A program made the translations under genes and the position numbers. A stretch of 64,000 nt of DNA from Syntrophaceae bacterium (GTDB taxonomy: Bacteria; Desulfobacterota; Syntrophia; Syntrophales; PHBD01), in assembly GCA_013177825.1 (NCBI GenBank), contig JABLXX010000001.1, positions 906,936 to 970,935 on the forward strand, written 5' to 3'. Shown one piece after another: positions 25,897 through 64,000 of the stretch. The notes beneath the pieces are model-generated. The model saw only the letters and a program-made list of their open reading frames with translations, had not been told where the DNA came from and searched no databases. How positions within the stretch are numbered: the stretch's first letter is position 1; each line of letters begins with the position of its first letter.

Positions 25897-28800
25897 ATGA
25901 AGGCAGAGGGAGCGGAGTCCGTCAAAATAACGCGCCCCGGCCTTTCCCGGGTGGTTCAGCGGAGCCGGCTTTTTGCCCTTCTTGATCGCAAGCTGGAAAA
26001 GACGGTCGTCTGGATAACCTCGCCGGCCGGTTCCGGAAAGACGACGCTTGTTGCAAGCTATCTGGACGCCCGCCGGCAACCCTGTCTCTGGTACCGTTGT
26101 GACGAAGGAGATTCGGACCCCGCCACGTTCTTTTACTACATGGGGCTTGCCGCCCGGAAGGCAGCGCCGCGTTACAGGACCCCCCTTCCTCTTCTGAAGC
26201 CCCAATACCTGGCGGGCATTTCCCTGTTTGCCAGAAGATATTTCGAGAATCTCTGCAGCCGTCTCGTGAGTCGAGCCGCGTTGCATGGCAGCTCCTCCGC
26301 CGCTCCTTCGGGAAAGGGAGGCAGCAAGAAGGAGAAGCCGCCGGCGAAGACGGGTGTTTCTCATCCGCCCGGGAAGGAGGAGTTCACCATCGTCCTGGAC
26401 AACTATCAGGATGTGCCCGTCGATTCTCCATTTCACGACATGATCGCCCATGGTTTCGATATGATCCCGGAAGGCATTCACGTCGTGGTAATCAGTCGAA
26501 GCGGTCCGCCGCCGGCATTCGCGCGCCTGCAGGCCGGCGATCGAATGGACGTGCTCGAATACGGCGACATTCGTTTTACACTTGGAGAATCGGAGAAACT
26601 CGTTTGGGGACGCATCCCGGACCTGGACCGTAAACGCGTAGCGGCGATGCATGAAAGCGCGGAAGGGTGGGCCGCGGGCATTATTCTGATGCTCGAAAGG
26701 ACGAAGCTTGAAGGAGAAAGAGCGGAATCGGTGCCGGACGGTGCGTATGAACGGGTGTTCGATTATTTTGCCGGTGAGATATTCAACAAGACCGAAAAAG
26801 GGATTCAGGACTTTCTGCTGAAGACGGCCTTTCTGCCCGTGCTCGCCGTTCCCCTGGCGGAGAAACTGACCGGTGTCGTCGATGGAAGGCGAATCCTCTC
26901 CGCGCTGAACCGTAATAATTATTTCACGGAAAAACTCGCCGGGAGCGGGCAGGATTATCAATACCATCCATTGTTCAGGGATTTTCTCCTGAACAGGGCC
27001 AGGGCGAAATTCACCCCCGATGAATGGACAGTCGCCCAGAGGGAGGCGGCGCTGCTCCTCGATCAGTCCGGACAGATCGAAGACGCCGCAAGGCTTTACG
27101 GCGACGCCGGAGACTGGCAGGGGCTCGCCCGGATGGTTATGGATCATGCCGAGGACCTCCTGGCGCAGGGAAGAAGCAAAACCGTTGAAGAATGGATCGC
27201 CGCAATCCCCGGCGGGATCACGGACGATCAGCCGTGGCTGCTGTACTGGGCCGGAATGTGCTCGTTTCCATTCGACATGCCCCGAGCAAGACGATACCTG
27301 AAGAGGGCCTTTGCCTCGTTCAAAACCATGGACGACACGGCGGGCATCTATCTTTCATGGGCCGGAATCGTGGACGTCTATAGCTACGAGATGGACGAGT
27401 GGAGGCGCCTCGACGACTGCATCGAGATCTTCGAGGGTCTGAGAAGAACGCATCCTTCCTTTCCCTCAAAAGAAATAGCACTCATCGCATCGTCCAGGAT
27501 GCTGATCTCGCTCACTCTGAGAAAAACGGACCAGCCGCAGAGGGTGCATCGCTGGCTGAGGCGCGTGGATAACCTTCTGCAGGAGACGCCGTCCATTGAC
27601 ATTCGGATGGATATCGTCTTCTGTACGAGCCTCTATAATTTATGGAAAGGGGAGTATCACAAGAACGCCATCCTGCTCGAAACGGCGGAGGCCGATATCC
27701 GCCATCGCAAACCGTCTCCCTTTTCCGTCATTCGCATCAAATTGATGAGGGGGATCCATTTCTGGGTTACGGCGCAGTACGATTCCGCCCTGCATACGCT
27801 GTCCGAAGGGCTGGATATTGCCGGGAAGAGCGGCGTCCATGTCTTTGATTCCCTTCTGTGGAGTTTCATGGCGGCGGCGCAGATGGCACCCGGCCGCATG
27901 GAGATGGCGGGGGAATCGATCCGGAATCAGATGACCGCCTCTCCCGGTACGCCGAAGGCGCTGGATCTCTATTTTTATCACTTCAACTCCGCATGGCATG
28001 CCATCCTTGCCGGGAACGCGTACCTCGCCGCTGAAAATCTGGAGACGATCTCCGCGAACGTGGCGAAGATGGGCAATCCTTATTACCGGGCCCTGTGGCA
28101 TATCGGCATGGCGCAGGTGGCCTTCATGCAGGAGCGATCGAGGGAGGTCGGGAACCATATCCGCGCAGCACACCGGATAGCCCGTGATATGAAGAGCCCC
28201 GTCGTGGAGTGGTACAGCCTGCTGATCGATGCCTATTTCCTTTTGCGGCAAGGCAGGGAGAAGGAAGGGCTTCTGTCGCTGCGGCGGGGACTGTCGCTGG
28301 GCGGGAAGCACGGCTATGTCCACCTCGAGTTCTATCAGCCTTCCCTCATGCGCTTTCTTTACGCCAGGGCGCTGAAGGAAGGGATCGAACCGGATTATGT
28401 GAAGGGGCTGATCAGGAAACTGGGGCTCACTCCCCCCTCCCCGGAACATGACCCCGGAGAATGGCCTTACCCGGTCAGGATCTACTCTTTGGGGAGGTTT
28501 GCGGTGATCAGGTACGACGGGGTGCTCGAGTATGCCGGGAAAGTGCAGAAAAAACCGCTCGAAATGCTCAAGGCCGTCATTGCCTTTGGAGGCGTGAATG
28601 TGCCGGCGGATCGTCTTGCGAATGCACTCTGGCCCGATGCTGATGGCGACCTGGCGCATAAATCCTTTGAAATGACGCTGAGCCGTCTGCGCCGTCTGCT
28701 CGGCGGAGAAAACATCGTCCGCTACAGCGCAGGGCAGCTGAGCCTGGATCCGAATTATTGCTGGGTCGACAGCCTTGCGCTGGAGCATATCATCGGACTG

Positions 28801-29202
28801 ATCAGGAAATCCCCGCCAGATGATGTTGCCGGGCTCTGCGAGAGGGCCGTCAGCCTTTATGAAGGGCCTTTCCTTCCTGCGGACAGCGGTCTGCGGTGGA
28901 CTCTGTCAAAGCGTGAAATGCTGCAGATCGGCCTGCTCCGCATCATCGATACGGCCGGTCGTCATCATGAGAAGGAAGGGCAATGGGAAAGAGCGGCTGA
29001 GTGTTACCGGAAGGGGCTGGATACGGACGATCTGGCGGAGGCATTCTATCAGCGTTTGATCGTCTGTTATCGGGAACTGGGCGACAGGGTGGAGGCGGTC
29101 AGGACATACAACCGGTGCCGTCGCATTCTGAAGGAAAAGCTTGAAATCGAGCCTTCCGCGGAAACCCGGGCCGTCTATTCCTCCCTGCTTCAGGCGACGT
29201 AG
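25897..29202 (+). CDS. MalT-like STAND ATPase regulator with C-terminal BTAD/SARP-type domain
   Basis: 1101 residues. The N-terminal NTPase has Walker A SPAGSGKTT (about 43-51), and VLDNYQDV is the Walker B region. A winged-helix-like segment and a long helical TPR-like array (about 380-840) follow. The C-terminal part from about residue 860 (IYSLGRFAV ... NALWPDADGDLAHKSFEMTLSRLRRLLG) is an OmpR-like wing plus bacterial transcriptional activator domain, as in SARP-type regulators. LuxR-type HTH is absent. GGAGGG precedes the start. Such large regulators sense a metabolite through the TPR region. The adjacent hydrolase genes (29.3-32.3 kb) are the likely targets, by position only. Confidence 0.85.
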   Translation: MKAEGAESVKITRPGLSRVVQRSRLFALLDRKLEKTVVWITSPAGSGKTTLVASYLDARRQPCLWYRCDEGDSDPATFFYYMGLAARKAAPRYRTPLPLLKPQYLAGISLFARRYFENLCSRLVSRAALHGSSSAAPSGKGGSKKEKPPAKTGVSHPPGKEEFTIVLDNYQDVPVDSPFHDMIAHGFDMIPEGIHVVVISRSGPPPAFARLQAGDRMDVLEYGDIRFTLGESEKLVWGRIPDLDRKRVAAMHESAEGWAAGIILMLERTKLEGERAESVPDGAYERVFDYFAGEIFNKTEKGIQDFLLKTAFLPVLAVPLAEKLTGVVDGRRILSALNRNNYFTEKLAGSGQDYQYHPLFRDFLLNRARAKFTPDEWTVAQREAALLLDQSGQIEDAARLYGDAGDWQGLARMVMDHAEDLLAQGRSKTVEEWIAAIPGGITDDQPWLLYWAGMCSFPFDMPRARRYLKRAFASFKTMDDTAGIYLSWAGIVDVYSYEMDEWRRLDDCIEIFEGLRRTHPSFPSKEIALIASSRMLISLTLRKTDQPQRVHRWLRRVDNLLQETPSIDIRMDIVFCTSLYNLWKGEYHKNAILLETAEADIRHRKPSPFSVIRIKLMRGIHFWVTAQYDSALHTLSEGLDIAGKSGVHVFDSLLWSFMAAAQMAPGRMEMAGESIRNQMTASPGTPKALDLYFYHFNSAWHAILAGNAYLAAENLETISANVAKMGNPYYRALWHIGMAQVAFMQERSREVGNHIRAAHRIARDMKSPVVEWYSLLIDAYFLLRQGREKEGLLSLRRGLSLGGKHGYVHLEFYQPSLMRFLYARALKEGIEPDYVKGLIRKLGLTPPSPEHDPGEWPYPVRIYSLGRFAVIRYDGVLEYAGKVQKKPLEMLKAVIAFGGVNVPADRLANALWPDADGDLAHKSFEMTLSRLRRLLGGENIVRYSAGQLSLDPNYCWVDSLALEHIIGLIRKSPPDDVAGLCERAVSLYEGPFLPADSGLRWTLSKREMLQIGLLRIIDTAGRHHEKEGQWERAAECYRKGLDTDDLAEAFYQRLIVCYRELGDRVEAVRTYNRCRRILKEKLEIEPSAETRAVYSSLLQAT

Positions 29203-59452: not shown

Positions 59453-60098
59453 GTCGTTTCCTCCTTTTTGACGGGCCGGGGCCGAACGGCCTGTAGCTGT
59501 TCGCTGTCCTGCCAGCGGCGGAATGTGCCGGCGATCGATCATTGCCACAGGCTGGGCAGTTCAATCCGCCGGGTCAGGGAGCCATGTGCCGGCAGGATCT
59601 TCATCTGTCTTCCCGGAGCATCGGTTATCCTTGGGGATGCACAACGGTCCCTGGTAACGGTTACCCGACGCCCCATGATCTATTTTGAGAAGGCGATCTG
59701 ATATGCACTCCGGGCTATGTGGATGCACCTCAAATATACCGTTTGCCATATTGATAGCAAGAAGTGCCATATTTATAGAGAAATCCGAATTCCCTGTCAA
59801 TGCAAGGCGTCGCTTGTCGTTCCGAGCGCTGTATCTTCCTGCGACTGAGTGAGACTGCGAATTGAACGACGGAACCGTCACGATGCGACACTCTGTCCAT
59901 GTCACTATGTAATGCTGCCAATCCCCTATACCGCTTACAAGATTATCAAGCATTGTCATTCAACGGGATTCATCTACCCTGCAATTGCAAACGGAAAATC
60001 TGGTTTGCGTATCTTTGATTGGTCGATCTCCGGAAAGATCGGCCCCCATTGTACCTGAGGGATGTTATGCCGGTGAAACCGGGAAAGGAGGAAGAATC
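59453..60098. other. Intergenic region with operator-like direct repeats
   Basis: About 645 bp between divergent genes. TGCCATATTGATAG (59744-59757) and TGCCATATTTATAG (59765-59778) are 13/14 identical and start 21 bp apart (two helical turns). A GCAAAC/GTTTGC inverted repeat lies near 59986-60009. No credible gene; the 132-residue minus-strand frame here has no ribosome binding site. Confidence 0.55.
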
Positions 60099-60458
60099 AT
60101 GAAACGAACGACCCTGGTAATCGCATTGGCGGTTATGTTTTTCCTGATTGCGGGCATTTCAGTAAACTCTGCCTTTGCCGTCAGCTGTTCCGATCAGGAG
60201 GTGTCCTGCTGGATCAACGCCGATAAATCGAAGAGCGTCGCAAAGACGAAATTCAGCAGGTGCTGGAGCTGGAAACATTTGGGATGCATGCCGTGCGGCG
60301 GAGAAAAGGAGTGGAGTTACGCCGCAAAGTGGTGCGACAAAAACTATAAAGATCAATGCAAAGAAAGATGCTGGGCGTGTTTTCGCAATCCAATCGACTC
60401 CTGTGTGAATGGAACGGCCTGCTGGAACACGGTCAATGACAAGCTGTGCATTTACTAG
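60099..60458 (+). CDS. Exported cysteine-rich protein C1
   Basis: 119 residues with AAAGGAGG upstream. The signal peptide ends SAFA (signal peptidase I type, A-x-A). The mature part has 12 cysteines. Shared family pattern: EVSC, KTKFSRCWSW, GCMPC (C-x2-C), WSYAAKWC, then a C-x3-C-x2-C cluster and two or three later cysteines. Here the usual adjacent C-C is C-W. The family is unknown to me. First member of module 1 of the array. Likely folded by disulfides in the periplasm or outside the cell. Confidence 0.8.
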   Translation: MKRTTLVIALAVMFFLIAGISVNSAFAVSCSDQEVSCWINADKSKSVAKTKFSRCWSWKHLGCMPCGGEKEWSYAAKWCDKNYKDQCKERCWACFRNPIDSCVNGTACWNTVNDKLCIY

Positions 60459-60468
60459 AGCCTGGAAA

Positions 60469-60843
60469 ATGAAGACACCGATCCGAATCATCAGCCTGGC
60501 GGTCATGTTGCTCCTGAGTGCGGGCGTATCCGTAAACTTGGCCTGTGCTTTCGGGTGTCCGGATTGGGAAGTCTCCTGCTGTATTGATGGAGACAAGTCG
60601 CAGACCCTGGCGAAGACTTCCTTCACCATGTGCTGGAGCTGGAAAAGAGTTGGATGCGTGCCGTGTCACGGAGGGGGGAAGTGGAACTGGCTTGCCGACT
60701 GGTGCAACGACAACTACAGCGGGTGTCAGGCGAGATGCCAGGGGTGTATTGAGGACGAGACTCCATACTGGACACCCCTGGCTTCGAGCATCAAAGGCAA
60801 ATTCAGCTGCGTGGACAGCAACGGCCATTGGCATTCTCACTGA
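60469..60843 (+). CDS. Exported cysteine-rich protein C2
   Basis: 124 residues from ATG 60469, 10 bp after C1. The signal peptide ends near LACAFGC. Family pattern WEVSCCIDGDKS, SFTMCWSWKRVGCVPC, WLADWCND. The mature part has 11 cysteines and a longer tail (TPYWTPLAS ...) like C6. An upstream ATG at 60436 would overlap C1 and lacks the signal peptide start. Second member of module 1; the ribosome binding site is weak, so coupling to C1 is likely. Confidence 0.75.
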   Translation: MKTPIRIISLAVMLLLSAGVSVNLACAFGCPDWEVSCCIDGDKSQTLAKTSFTMCWSWKRVGCVPCHGGGKWNWLADWCNDNYSGCQARCQGCIEDETPYWTPLASSIKGKFSCVDSNGHWHSH

Positions 60844-60942
60844 GTTTAACTCCATCAAGGGGATGTGTTGTGTCCGCGCGGATGCAGCTGCCTCTGGAGG
60901 AGGGAGATCAGGATCAACATTCATTTCAAGGAGGAGAGATTG

Positions 60943-61356
60943 ATGAGAGAGCTGTCGCGGGTATGCATTGCATTGGTCATCGCATGTGCGTTTTTAGCCG
61001 GTCAGGCTTTTGCCGGTGAGGCGAAGGATAAGGCATCCGAAAACAAGAGGACCGTGATTTACAGTTTTCTGGGCACGGTGGTGAAGGCGGATGCGGAGAA
61101 GAAGACGATCACGATCAAGGCCGTGGCGGACAAGGAAAATTACCTGCTGAAAGACGACATGCCGTTCCGGGAGTTCAGTGCCGAGGGGAAAGAGATCACC
61201 TTTGATGTCTCGAAGGCGCAATTTCTGGGGGCAAAGGACGTCGGCGGCATAGTGGGACATCCGCTTGTCAGGGTTGGTTATGACAATGTGGGCGGAGCGT
61301 ATGTTGCCCACACGGTACTGGTTCTGTCGAAGCGGGAGTTTTCCATGGCCCGATAA
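60943..61356 (+). CDS. Exported beta-rich protein B1
   Basis: 137 residues from ATG 60943 with AAGGAGG upstream. The signal peptide ends GQAFA. The mature part has no Cys. It starts GEAKDKASENKRTVIYSFLG and runs through a strand-rich core (TITIKAVAD, MPFREFSAEGKEITFD, VGYDN) ending AHTVLVLSKR. This suggests a small OB-like or beta-barrel fold, similar in style to DUF5666-like exported proteins. Its 5-prime leader and start are nearly identical in DNA to B3. Third member of module 1. Confidence 0.8.
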   Translation: MRELSRVCIALVIACAFLAGQAFAGEAKDKASENKRTVIYSFLGTVVKADAEKKTITIKAVADKENYLLKDDMPFREFSAEGKEITFDVSKAQFLGAKDVGGIVGHPLVRVGYDNVGGAYVAHTVLVLSKREFSMAR

Positions 61357-61385
61357 GATGAGGGAATACAGAGGGAGGGTGAGCC

Positions 61386-61739
61386 ATGAAAAAAACGGGC
61401 TGCATGGTGGCTATGGCGTTTTTTTTGTTTCTGACTGCAGTTGTGTTTGTAAATTCTGCCGGTGCTTTCGACTACTGTGAGAAGCAAGAATATTCATGTT
61501 GCATGGAAGGCAAAAAGGATGCGGTGGACAAAACAAAATTCAGCATGTGCTGGAGCTGGAGTTCATTTGAATGTGTGCCGTGTCACGGAGGCGGGAAATG
61601 GGGGTATTTAGCCGAGTGGTGTAATGACAACTACCCCCAGTGCGAAGGGAAATGTGATGCTTGCTGGCCAGTTGCCGATCCGGATTCAAAATGTGTCATG
61701 CTCTGTTATGACAAGCATGGCCATAAGACATGCAAATGA
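61386..61739 (+). CDS. Exported cysteine-rich protein C3
   Basis: 117 residues, preceded by GGGAGGG. Signal peptide MKKTGCMVAMAFFLFLTAVV ending near SAGAF. Thirteen cysteines in the mature part: YSCCMEGK, SMCWSWSSFECVPC, WGYLAEWCND and QCEGKCDAC. The same family as C1-C6, but the most divergent in its second half (VADPDSKC). First member of module 2. Confidence 0.8.
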   Translation: MKKTGCMVAMAFFLFLTAVVFVNSAGAFDYCEKQEYSCCMEGKKDAVDKTKFSMCWSWSSFECVPCHGGGKWGYLAEWCNDNYPQCEGKCDACWPVADPDSKCVMLCYDKHGHKTCK

Positions 61740-61761
61740 TCTGAAACAGGGAGGATGAAGC

Positions 61762-62115
61762 ATGAAAAAAACGGGCTATATCCTGGGGATGCTGGTCTTC
61801 TTTCTCCTGATTGGCTGCATATCCGTGAATTCGGCCTGTGCCATGGGCTGTGAGGATTGGGAAGTCTCCTGCTGTATTGATGGGAATGATTCGCAGACCG
61901 TGGCAACGACTTCTTTCAGTATGTGCTGGAGCTGGTCAAAGTTCGGCTGTGTCCCCTGTCATGGAAAGCATAAATGGTCGTATCTCGCAACATGGTGCAA
62001 TGACAACTACAACCAATGCGAAGGGAAATGCAGAGCCTGTCATTACATGAGTTCTGAGTATTGCAAGAAGTCGCGAACCTGCTGGGACAAGGAAGGGAAA
62101 TCACATTGTCAATAG
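61762..62115 (+). CDS. Exported cysteine-rich protein C4
   Basis: 117 residues, 22 bp after C3, with GGGAGG upstream. The signal peptide ends NSACA. Thirteen cysteines in the mature part: WEVSCCIDGND, SMCWSWSKFGCVPC, WCNDNYNQCEGKCRAC, and a tail YCKKSRTC. DNA around WEVSCCIDG is nearly identical to C2 and C5. Second member of module 2. Confidence 0.8.
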   Translation: MKKTGYILGMLVFFLLIGCISVNSACAMGCEDWEVSCCIDGNDSQTVATTSFSMCWSWSKFGCVPCHGKHKWSYLATWCNDNYNQCEGKCRACHYMSSEYCKKSRTCWDKEGKSHCQ

Positions 62116-62152
62116 GATGGAGGACAGAGAAAAAAGCAAGGAGGGGCGATTT

Positions 62153-62554
62153 ATGAAGAACCTGTTGCGTGTATGCGTTGCAATGATCATCGTATGTGTC
62201 TTTCTAGCCGGTCAGGCCTTCGCCGGTGAGGCGAAAGATGCGGCATCCGAAAACAAGAGGGCCGTTGTCTATAGTTTTCTGGGTACGGTTGCAAAGATGG
62301 ATGCGGGAAAGAAGACGATCACCATCCATGCCGTTGCAGACAAGGAAGAATATCTCAGGGAGGGCGACATGCCGTTCCGGGAGTTCAGTGCCGACGGGCA
62401 AGAGATCACCTTTGACGTCTCGAAGGCGGTGTTTCTGGGGGTTAACGACATCAGCAACATCAAGGGACTCCAGCTTGTCAGGGTTGGTTATGACAAAGAG
62501 GGAGGAGCGTATATGGCTCACACGGTATTGGTTTTGACGAAGAGGAAGCCCTGA
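62153..62554 (+). CDS. Exported beta-rich protein B2
   Basis: 133 residues from ATG 62153 with AAGGAGG upstream. Signal peptide ending GQAFA, then GEAKDAASENKRAVVYSFLG and the same core as B1 and B3 (FREFSADGQEITFD, LVRVGYDKEGG, MAHTVLVLTKRKP). Mature protein without Cys. Third member of module 2. The following 150 bp hold no gene. Confidence 0.8.
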   Translation: MKNLLRVCVAMIIVCVFLAGQAFAGEAKDAASENKRAVVYSFLGTVAKMDAGKKTITIHAVADKEEYLREGDMPFREFSADGQEITFDVSKAVFLGVNDISNIKGLQLVRVGYDKEGGAYMAHTVLVLTKRKP

Positions 62555-62706
62555 AGCGGGGGTCGGGCTCTCTCCGGTCGGATGACGCTACCAAGTCAAG
62601 CTGTTCGTGATCCAAGGTGATGTTGCGGGGGGCCTGGCGGAGAAGCGCTCTTTTTCGCCGGGAGACTGTCTGTTGGTGAAATAAGAGAAAACAAGGAGGA
62701 CGTAAC

Positions 62707-63060
62707 ATGAAAAAAACGAGCTGCATCGTGGCAATGGCGTTTTTCTGTCTCCTGCTTGCCGGCATATCCGCAAACTCAGCCTGGGCTATGGGCTGTTCGG
62801 ATCGGGAAGTCTCCTGCTGTATTGACGGCAAGCAATCGGAGACGGTGGCCAAGACGAAATTCAGCAGGTGCTGGAGCTGGAAAGACTTTGGATGCGTGCC
62901 GTGCCATGGAGGGGGAAAATGGAGTTATGCCGCCGAATGGTGCAATGACAACTACGGTCAGTGCCAGGGGAAGTGCAAAGCGTGTTTTCATGATCCTGGT
63001 GATCGGTGTGTGCTGAAACTGACCTGCTGGGACAAGGACGGCCGGCAGACGTGTCAATGA
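62707..63060 (+). CDS. Exported cysteine-rich protein C5
   Basis: 117 residues with AAGGAGGA upstream. The signal peptide ends NSAWA. Thirteen cysteines in the mature part: REVSCCIDGK, KTKFSRCWSWKDFGCVPC, WSYAAEWCND, QCQGKCKAC and GDRCVLKLTC. The closest relative is C1. First member of module 3. Confidence 0.8.
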   Translation: MKKTSCIVAMAFFCLLLAGISANSAWAMGCSDREVSCCIDGKQSETVAKTKFSRCWSWKDFGCVPCHGGGKWSYAAEWCNDNYGQCQGKCKACFHDPGDRCVLKLTCWDKDGRQTCQ

Positions 63061-63082
63061 TCCGAAGAAGGGAGGATGAGCC

Positions 63083-63463
63083 ATGAGGGAAGCGGGCTGC
63101 ATTATGGCGATGGCGGTTTGCTTTATCCTGCTTGCCGATGCATCCATAAACTCAAAGGAGGCTGTCGGCTGTCAGGATAAGAAGGTCTCCTGCTGTATCG
63201 ACGGCGATGAATCGAAGACGGTGGCCAAGACCAAATTCACCATGTGCTGGAGTTGGAGCAAGGCTGAATGTCGGCCGTGTAATGGCGAAGGGCAATGGGC
63301 TTATATTTCTCTATGGTGCAATGTCAACTACATCAATGAATGCCACGGAACATGCCAGGGGTGCTTCAAAGTGCAATATCCCTTTTTTATGACACCGCAG
63401 GCTTCAGAGGGAGATGACGGGATCTGCTGCGTTGATAATGAAGGCCATAAGCGTTGTCGATGA
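63083..63463 (+). CDS. Exported cysteine-rich protein C6
   Basis: 126 residues with GGGAGG upstream. The signal peptide (MREAGCIMAMAVCFILLADA) has a less clear cleavage site near NSKEAVGC. Thirteen cysteines in the mature part: KKVSCCIDGDES, FTMCWSWSKAECRPC, ECHGTCQGC and ICC near the end. The long tail with TPQAS is like C2. Second member of module 3. Confidence 0.78.
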   Translation: MREAGCIMAMAVCFILLADASINSKEAVGCQDKKVSCCIDGDESKTVAKTKFTMCWSWSKAECRPCNGEGQWAYISLWCNVNYINECHGTCQGCFKVQYPFFMTPQASEGDDGICCVDNEGHKRCR

Positions 63464-63559
63464 TTCGGGCTTCAACCACGGGAGGCAATGGAGTCGGGAG
63501 GTAAACCGTCACTGAAGAGGGTGATCAGGATCAACATTCATTTCGAGGAGGAGCGATTG

Positions 63560-63955
63560 ATGAGAGAGCTGTCGCGTGTATGCATTGCATTGGTCATCGC
63601 ATGTGCCTTTCTGGCAGGCCAGGCCTTTGCCGGTGAGGCTAAGGATAAGGCATCCGGAAATCAGAGGACCGTGATTTACAGTTTTCTGGGCGCAGTGACG
63701 GGGATGGATGCGGGGGAAAAGACGATCACCATCAATGCCGTTGCGGACAGGGAAGATTACCTGACGGAAGGTGACATGCCGTTCCGGGAGTTCAGTGCCG
63801 AGGGGAAAGAGATCACCTTGGATATCTCGAAGGTGATGTTTCTGGGGGTGGAAGACATCAAAGGAATCAAGGCACTCCAACTCGTCAGGGTCGGTTATGA
63901 CAAGAAGGGCGAAGTGCATGTTGCTCACACGGTGTTGGTTCTGTCAAAGCGGTAG
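63560..63955 (+). CDS. Exported beta-rich protein B3
   Basis: 131 residues from ATG 63560 with GAGGAGG upstream. The leader GGATCAACATTCATTT and the first 25 codons nearly repeat those of B1. Signal peptide ending GQAFA, GEAKDKASGNQRTVIY, then FREFSAEGKEITLD and AHTVLVLSKR. Third member of module 3. The array may continue past the window end, 45 bp later. Confidence 0.8.
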   Translation: MRELSRVCIALVIACAFLAGQAFAGEAKDKASGNQRTVIYSFLGAVTGMDAGEKTITINAVADREDYLTEGDMPFREFSAEGKEITLDISKVMFLGVEDIKGIKALQLVRVGYDKKGEVHVAHTVLVLSKR

Positions 63956-64000
63956 CTGTGAAGCCGGGCTCGGGCATTCCGGGGCCTGTACACGCTGTGA

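What the first reader, a model, noticed from the sequence alone, without database searches (positions are those of the whole stretch)
60099..63955. Three tandem modules of two secreted Cys-rich proteins plus one beta-rich partner
Nine exported small proteins lie in the exact order C C B, repeated three times. C proteins keep a shared pattern of 11-13 cysteines (SCC, CWSW, C-x2-C, C-x3-C-x2-C); B proteins have none. C1 pairs with C5, C2 with C6 and B1 with B3, so the module was duplicated as a unit and the middle module has diverged. Module-wise amplification suggests that C and B act together, for example as an extracellular disulfide-rich complex, envelope coat, antagonistic factor or metal scaffold. 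Cys-rich extracellular clusters in anaerobes can also hold metal or haem, but no CxxCH is present.
Basis: partly seen in the sequence, partly recalled or inferred. Interest (0 to 1): 0.85.

Follow-up and report, generated by a model that had tools for sequence, protein, structure and literature searches.

The report
Secreted cysteine-rich array with its exporter
A sediment bacterium carries a tandem cluster of small, exported, cysteine-rich proteins next to the genes of a pump that probably pushes them out of the cell; every other genome I found with an intact member of this protein family also has that pump, so this looks like an undescribed protein-secretion route whose biological purpose is still unknown.

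Summary
Window 60099-63955 encodes nine small exported proteins in the order C C B three times; C1-C2-B1 and C5-C6-B3 are a collinear 1.28-kb DNA duplication (71%). One stated fact is wrong: six of eight C proteins in the full array do have CxxCH (CVPCH or CKPCH), although family-wide only 14 of 29 do, so haem binding is not a conserved trait.

The window edge hid the key context. The array runs on with two more C genes and then a same-strand TolC / PAS-fused HlyD adaptor / MacB-type ATPase / MacB-type permease operon. C and this exporter track each other. In the order Syntrophales, 9 of 10 C genomes have it (17 of 155 genomes do), and the exception holds a truncated C without a signal peptide. 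In a phylum sample all 5 C genomes have it (11 of 395). Often the two are not neighbours. B is confident in six genomes and lies beside C in five, but most C genomes lack B.

Best explanation: Sec delivers C to the periplasm, disulfides form, and the PAS-MacAB-TolC exporter drives C outside, as described for E. coli STII; B is a periplasmic or co-exported partner. Export and biological role are inferred. C and B match no curated family.

The parts
60099..60458 (+). C1, exported Cys-rich protein, 119 aa, 12 Cys in the mature part; first gene of module 1
60469..60843 (+). C2, exported Cys-rich protein, 124 aa, 11 Cys in the mature part, CVPCH
60943..61356 (+). B1, exported beta-rich partner, 137 aa, no mature Cys
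61386..61739 (+). C3, exported Cys-rich protein, 117 aa, 13 Cys in the mature part, CVPCH
61762..62115 (+). C4, exported Cys-rich protein, 117 aa, 13 Cys in the mature part, CVPCH; groups with C8 in the tree
62153..62554 (+). B2, exported beta-rich partner, 133 aa
62707..63060 (+). C5, exported Cys-rich protein, 117 aa, 13 Cys in the mature part, CVPCH; groups with C1; used for the fold model
63083..63463 (+). C6, exported Cys-rich protein, 126 aa, 13 Cys in the mature part, CRPCN; shares a tail insertion with C2
63560..63955 (+). B3, exported beta-rich partner, 131 aa; 5' leader close to that of B1
63956..64000 (+). End of window inside the cluster. It continues in the genome (window-frame coordinates): C7 64117-64476, C8 64754-65101, TolC-like 65296-66903, PAS-HlyD adaptor 66917-68701, MacB-type ATPase 68670-69365, MacB-type permease 69405-70577
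   Evidence: L009

Best explanation
The cluster is a two-step protein secretion unit. Shown: C and B proteins carry Sec-type signal sequences (by heuristic), and the array continues on the same strand into a tripartite exporter: TolC-like outer-membrane channel, HlyD-type adaptor with an N-terminal PAS domain, MacB-type ATPase and MacB-type periplasmic-core/FtsX permease. In the genomes searched, intact C proteins occur only where this exporter is present. Inferred: Sec moves C to the periplasm, its cysteines form disulfides, and the MacB-type exporter pushes the folded protein through the TolC channel, as described for E. coli STII. The PAS domain on the cytoplasmic side would gate the pump by a redox, gas or ligand signal. 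B, a small beta-rich protein with weak CusF/SilF-like similarity, would be a periplasmic escort or co-exported partner of the C proteins in arrays. The most likely use is an extracellular disulfide-rich effector or inhibitor set directed at competitors or their enzymes; this last step is the least certain.
For: Adjacency: C genes lie next to the exporter in G000, G001, G028 (Syntrophaceae UBA4054) and G032, which belong to three families of the order. Co-occurrence in the order: C in 10 and exporter in 17 of 155 genomes, both in 9 (Fisher 2e-9; by genus 7 of 7, 1.1e-5); the exception G090 has a C lacking its first 49 residues and signal peptide. Phylum sample: all 5 genomes with real C are among the 11 exporter genomes of 395 (6e-9; by genus 2.4e-7). 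In G012, G020, G091, G132, G133, G450, G464 and G484 C lies on a different contig from the exporter, so adjacency does not create the correlation. Pump domains: OEP, PAS + HlyD, ABC_tran, MacB_PCD + FtsX. Precedent: STII goes by Sec, gets Dsb disulfides and is exported by MacAB-TolC, with MacB acting on periplasmic substrate (PMC5985334). A DsbA-like thioredoxin gene lies 41 bp upstream of the exporter operon in G345. Other small exported proteins adjoin the same exporter elsewhere, among them chagasin I42 inhibitors in G012, G450 and G484.
Against: No export, disulfide or binding was measured. MacAB-type pumps also export drugs, heme precursors and siderophores. About half of the exporter genomes have no detectable C, so the pump either has other cargo or another main job. 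Outside C loci the enrichment of small exported Cys proteins beside the pump is weak: 0.33 per 10 kb, against 0.44 in more distant parts of the same loci (which include cluster parts) and 0.07 in unrelated loci. Genomes are related and mostly MAGs, so the Fisher values overstate independence. In G372 and G431 the adaptor lacks the PAS domain, so PAS gating is not universal.
Confidence: 0.58

Rival explanations
1. C proteins are periplasmic or surface proteins that bind metal or haem (CxxC/CxxCH sites), with B as a CusF-like metal chaperone; the exporter removes a toxic small molecule and is only functionally linked.
For: CxxCH is present in six of eight array copies. B has sub-threshold similarity to SilF/CusF (E 0.13 and 0.032).
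Against: The His is absent in 15 of 29 family members, including C1 and C6 of the same array. Ten or more conserved cysteines with few conserved His or Met look like disulfides. CusF matches are below cut-off.
Confidence: 0.17
2. The C/B array is a structural envelope or coat component (disulfide-linked surface layer or matrix) and the exporter is its assembly machine.
For: Most array C copies have 13 cysteines, an odd number that would leave one free for an inter-chain bond. Several different copies occur in one gene cluster.
Against: Distribution is sporadic and copy number runs from 1 to 8. A structural layer would be expected to be more universal within a genus.
Confidence: 0.12
3. C proteins are anti-competitor toxins (bacteriocin-like) and B proteins are their periplasmic immunity factors. 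(This is a sub-case of the secretion model; its confidence is for the specific roles.)
For: Tandem diversified paralogues in a lineage-specific expansion, variable tails, a linked exporter, and one B per two C.
Against: B is more conserved than C (72-76% against 41-62%) and most C genomes have no B. Gene-wide dN/dS is below 1. No match in PADLOC or PHROGs that suggests this.
Confidence: 0.2
4. C and exporter co-occur only because both are spread in larger genomes of certain lineages (shared ancestry), without a cargo relation.
For: C and pump genomes are often related and comparatively large.
Against: The link persists by genus in two samples, across at least two orders, and the one C genome without a pump holds a broken C. 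Adjacency occurs in three families.
Confidence: 0.2

Closest known systems
E. coli MacAB-TolC exporting heat-stable enterotoxin STII
   Same: TolC-like channel, HlyD-type adaptor, MacB-type ATPase and periplasmic-core permease. STII is likewise a small Sec-exported disulfide protein taken from the periplasm (PMC5985334).
   Different: The adaptor carries a cytoplasmic PAS domain; ATPase and permease are separate genes; the candidate cargo has 11-13 cysteines rather than the two disulfides of STII, and is arrayed. Export is not shown.
Exporters with dedicated peptide cargo genes (darobactin DarBCDE; lactococcin 972-type ABC)
   Same: NCBIfam models of these systems hit the adaptor and ATPase below cut-off; exporter encoded beside its cargo (own knowledge).
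   Different: Scores are well below the curated cut-offs, no modification enzymes are seen in the cluster, and the cargo has Sec-type signals.
CusF/SilF and BON- or EF-hand-linked small beta-rich periplasmic proteins
   Same: B and relatives share a GxVxxxDxxxKTIT...ITFD...VRVxYD pattern; weak CusF/SilF matches.
   Different: Below every cut-off; the B model is low confidence (pLDDT 42), so the fold is not established.
c-type cytochromes
   Same: CxxCH in 14 of 29 C family members.
   Different: The motif is not conserved across the family.

Membership tests
MacAB-TolC-type tripartite ABC exporter | TolC/OEP channel, HlyD-type adaptor, MacB-like ATPase, MacB_PCD + FtsX permease encoded together | tested here: met
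   Pfam OEP 1e-35, HlyD_D23 4e-11, ABC_tran 2e-32, MacB_PCD 7e-34, FtsX 3e-22; NCBIfam MacB is the best hit for ATPase and permease, below the equivalog cut-off (the model is of a fused protein, here split)
MacAB-TolC-type tripartite ABC exporter | Transport of substrate from periplasm to outside | not testable with these tools
   needs an export assay
STII-like (Sec plus MacAB) cargo | Sec signal peptide on a small cysteine-containing protein | tested here: met
   n-h-c signal pattern in the array C copies, by heuristic and inspection only
STII-like (Sec plus MacAB) cargo | Secretion depends on the exporter | not testable with these tools
   only genetic association is available
c-type cytochrome | CxxCH with proximal His conserved across the family | tested here: not met
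   14 of 29 members; C1 is CMPCG and C6 is CRPCN
CusF/SilF metal chaperone | Significant profile match | tested here: not met
   E 0.03 to 0.9, below the Pfam cut-off
CusF/SilF metal chaperone | OB-type fold | tested here: inconclusive
   model of B has five strands but pLDDT 42
Any curated family for C or B | Match at cut-off in Pfam, NCBIfam, PHROGs or PADLOC, or to a solved structure | tested here: not met
Known fold for C | Strong structural match in PDB | tested here: inconclusive
   best Foldseek E 1.6, best VIA-align Z 3.3; one of five models had pLDDT 76.6, the others about 45
Toxin with immunity partner B | Partner gene always accompanies the toxin gene | tested here: not met
   most C genomes lack B

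The most novel reading that the evidence does not exclude
A signal-gated, two-step secretion system dedicated to small folded disulfide-rich proteins in anaerobic deltaproteobacteria: a MacAB-TolC relative whose adaptor carries a PAS or GAF sensor, sometimes encoded beside STAS/HATPase partner-switch genes or a DsbA-like oxidase, serving several interchangeable families of small exported proteins of which C (with partner B) is one.
Probability: 0.4. Interest if true: 0.75.

Novelty: new variant of a known kind. Interest (0 to 1): 0.6.

Why it matters
MacAB-type pumps are mostly studied as drug pumps, with one well-known folded protein substrate. Here genomes show a candidate dedicated cargo, so substrate choice by MacB-type pumps could be tested on eight natural variants. 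A PAS domain fused to the adaptor would be a direct way to couple a cellular signal to outer-membrane export. It also gives a first handle on what uncultured syntrophic bacteria put outside the cell.

Tried and rejected
Array as a window-limited nine-gene unit: rejected, it continues. 'No CxxCH': wrong. Haem as family function: motif not conserved. Phage or plasmid cargo: no hit by tblastn with C5 in either collection; no PHROG match for C. Defence system: no PADLOC match. Positive selection: gene-wide dN/dS below 1 and dS often saturated, so neither shown nor excluded. Fold of C: no convincing solved relative. Fold of B: model too poor to search. G531 C hit: spurious, overlaps another ORF and contains stops. 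General enrichment of Cys proteins beside all exporters: weak. Literature: no paper found in the held library on a PAS-HlyD exporter of this kind or on Cys-rich secreted proteins of Syntrophales.

Full report
Observation. Gaps are short (10 to 152 bp) and eight of nine starts have a Shine-Dalgarno-like sequence. The C proteins share C30, C37, C55-W-S-W, C63-x2-C66, C79, C86/87, C90/91 and C93/94, W72, W78 and N82-Y83. DNA self-comparison shows collinear module copies: 60085-61338 with 62693-63955 (1276 bp, 71%), and shorter overlaps linking the middle module and the part beyond the window. The array region has GC 0.52 and strong GC skew against about 0.61 in most of the window.

Beyond the window. 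In the source genome (G000, contig of 1.1 Mb) the array continues with C7 and C8, without B, and 194 bp later an operon of four genes on the same strand: an OEP/TolC-like channel, a 594-aa adaptor with PAS at about residues 8-125 and HlyD domains at about 235-480, a MacB/LolD-type ATPase and a MacB_PCD + FtsX permease. The closest genome, HGW-Deltaproteobacteria-19 (G001), has the same arrangement from C7 onward, its contig starting inside the array, so its C and B counts are lower bounds.

Distribution. Profiles were made from 16 C, 7 B and 4 then 12 adaptor sequences. In 155 genomes of the order (Syntrophales by the record titles), C is in 10, B in 3 with confidence, the adaptor (E at most 1e-60) in 17; 9 of the 10 C genomes have the adaptor. 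The tenth, G090, keeps only the last 65 residues, 83% identical to the G091 protein, and has lost the signal peptide. In 395 genomes across the phylum, C is real in 5 and the adaptor in 11, and all 5 C genomes are among them. Fisher values are 2e-9 and 6e-9 by genome, 1e-5 and 2e-7 by genus. These treat lineages as independent and so overstate the strength; the two samples also share some genomes. In eight of these genomes C and the pump are on different contigs, so co-occurrence is not a by-product of linkage. Two further exporter genomes found by the adaptor scan, G534 (UBA7527, seven C) and G540 (Geobacteraceae, one C), also have C; they were chosen for the pump and are not counted.

C with B. 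Confident B occurs in G000, G028, G032, G372, G534 and G262. It adjoins C in all but G262, where it stands alone. G372, outside the order, has C C B, and G534 has C C B C C. So B follows C arrays, while C often occurs alone. B relatives with weaker scores are small exported proteins, some with BON or EF-hand-like parts.

Evolution. The tree puts C1-C8 in one lineage-specific group, whereas three pairs join G028 or G032 with G372 across orders (G28_C19+G372_Ca, G28_Cd+G372_Cb, G32_C+G372_Cc), which suggests transfer or old subfamilies. Paralogues are old (synonymous sites near saturation for many pairs), evolve under gene-wide constraint, and vary most in the C-terminal tail.

Neighbourhood of the exporter elsewhere. 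In other genomes small exported proteins of different families lie beside it: Cys-rich ones in G135, chagasin I42 inhibitors in G012, G450 and G484, a 129-aa protein in T. thiogenes, Lcl-type proteins in a Geobacteraceae MAG, and 'ACVFLK' and 'ICLHNK' proteins in G431 whose relatives sit beside C and B in G372. A statistical check of this wider pattern is weak, so it is a lead. The adaptor's N-terminal domain is PAS in most, GAF in G026 and absent in G372 and G431. STAS and HATPase_c_2 genes flank the exporter in several genomes, and a DsbA-like gene precedes it in G345.

Mechanism. MacB does not carry substrate across the inner membrane; it works on periplasmic substrate, and STII is a Sec-exported, Dsb-oxidised protein sent out by MacAB-TolC (PMC5985334). 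The anatomy here fits that scheme: signal peptides, many cysteines, exporter in the same gene cluster, and absence of the pump coinciding with a broken C in the one exception. What C does outside is not known. I lean to an antagonistic or inhibitory role because of array diversification, variable tails and the protease inhibitors beside the same pump, but this is inference from analogy.

Limits. Signal peptides were called by heuristic, genomes are mostly MAGs, the B fold is not modelled well, the C model had one good run of five, and no function was measured.

Noticed in passing
L009 7353-9137 and relatives (L095, L187, L194): HlyD-type adaptor with an N-terminal cytoplasmic PAS domain; the sensor is GAF in G026 and missing in G372 and G431.
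   Followed up: partly
L188 94-850, L190 7661-8427, L084 12326-13141: STAS and HATPase_c_2 (partner-switch type) genes directly beside the exporter in several genomes.
   Followed up: partly
L083 149-685, L188 6298-6717, L189 12930-13340: Chagasin-family I42 peptidase inhibitor next to the exporter permease in G012, G450 and G484.
   Followed up: partly
L193 12290-13078: DsbA-like thioredoxin gene 41 bp upstream of the exporter operon in G345.
   Followed up: partly
L009 4511-5110 against L037 1-600: C7 and its flanks are 99.7% identical between two species whose next genes are mostly about 85-97% identical; recent exchange or conversion is possible.
   Followed up: no
window 60001-64000: GC drops to about 0.52 and GC skew rises to about 0.22, unlike most of the window (about 0.61).
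   Followed up: no
window 25897-29202: 1101-aa protein with a C-terminal bacterial transcriptional activator domain and TPR.
   Followed up: no
L157 6747-7124 and 10260-10670; L194 12213-13254: Two other families of small exported proteins shared between the C/B cluster of G372 and the exporter locus of G431.
   Followed up: partly
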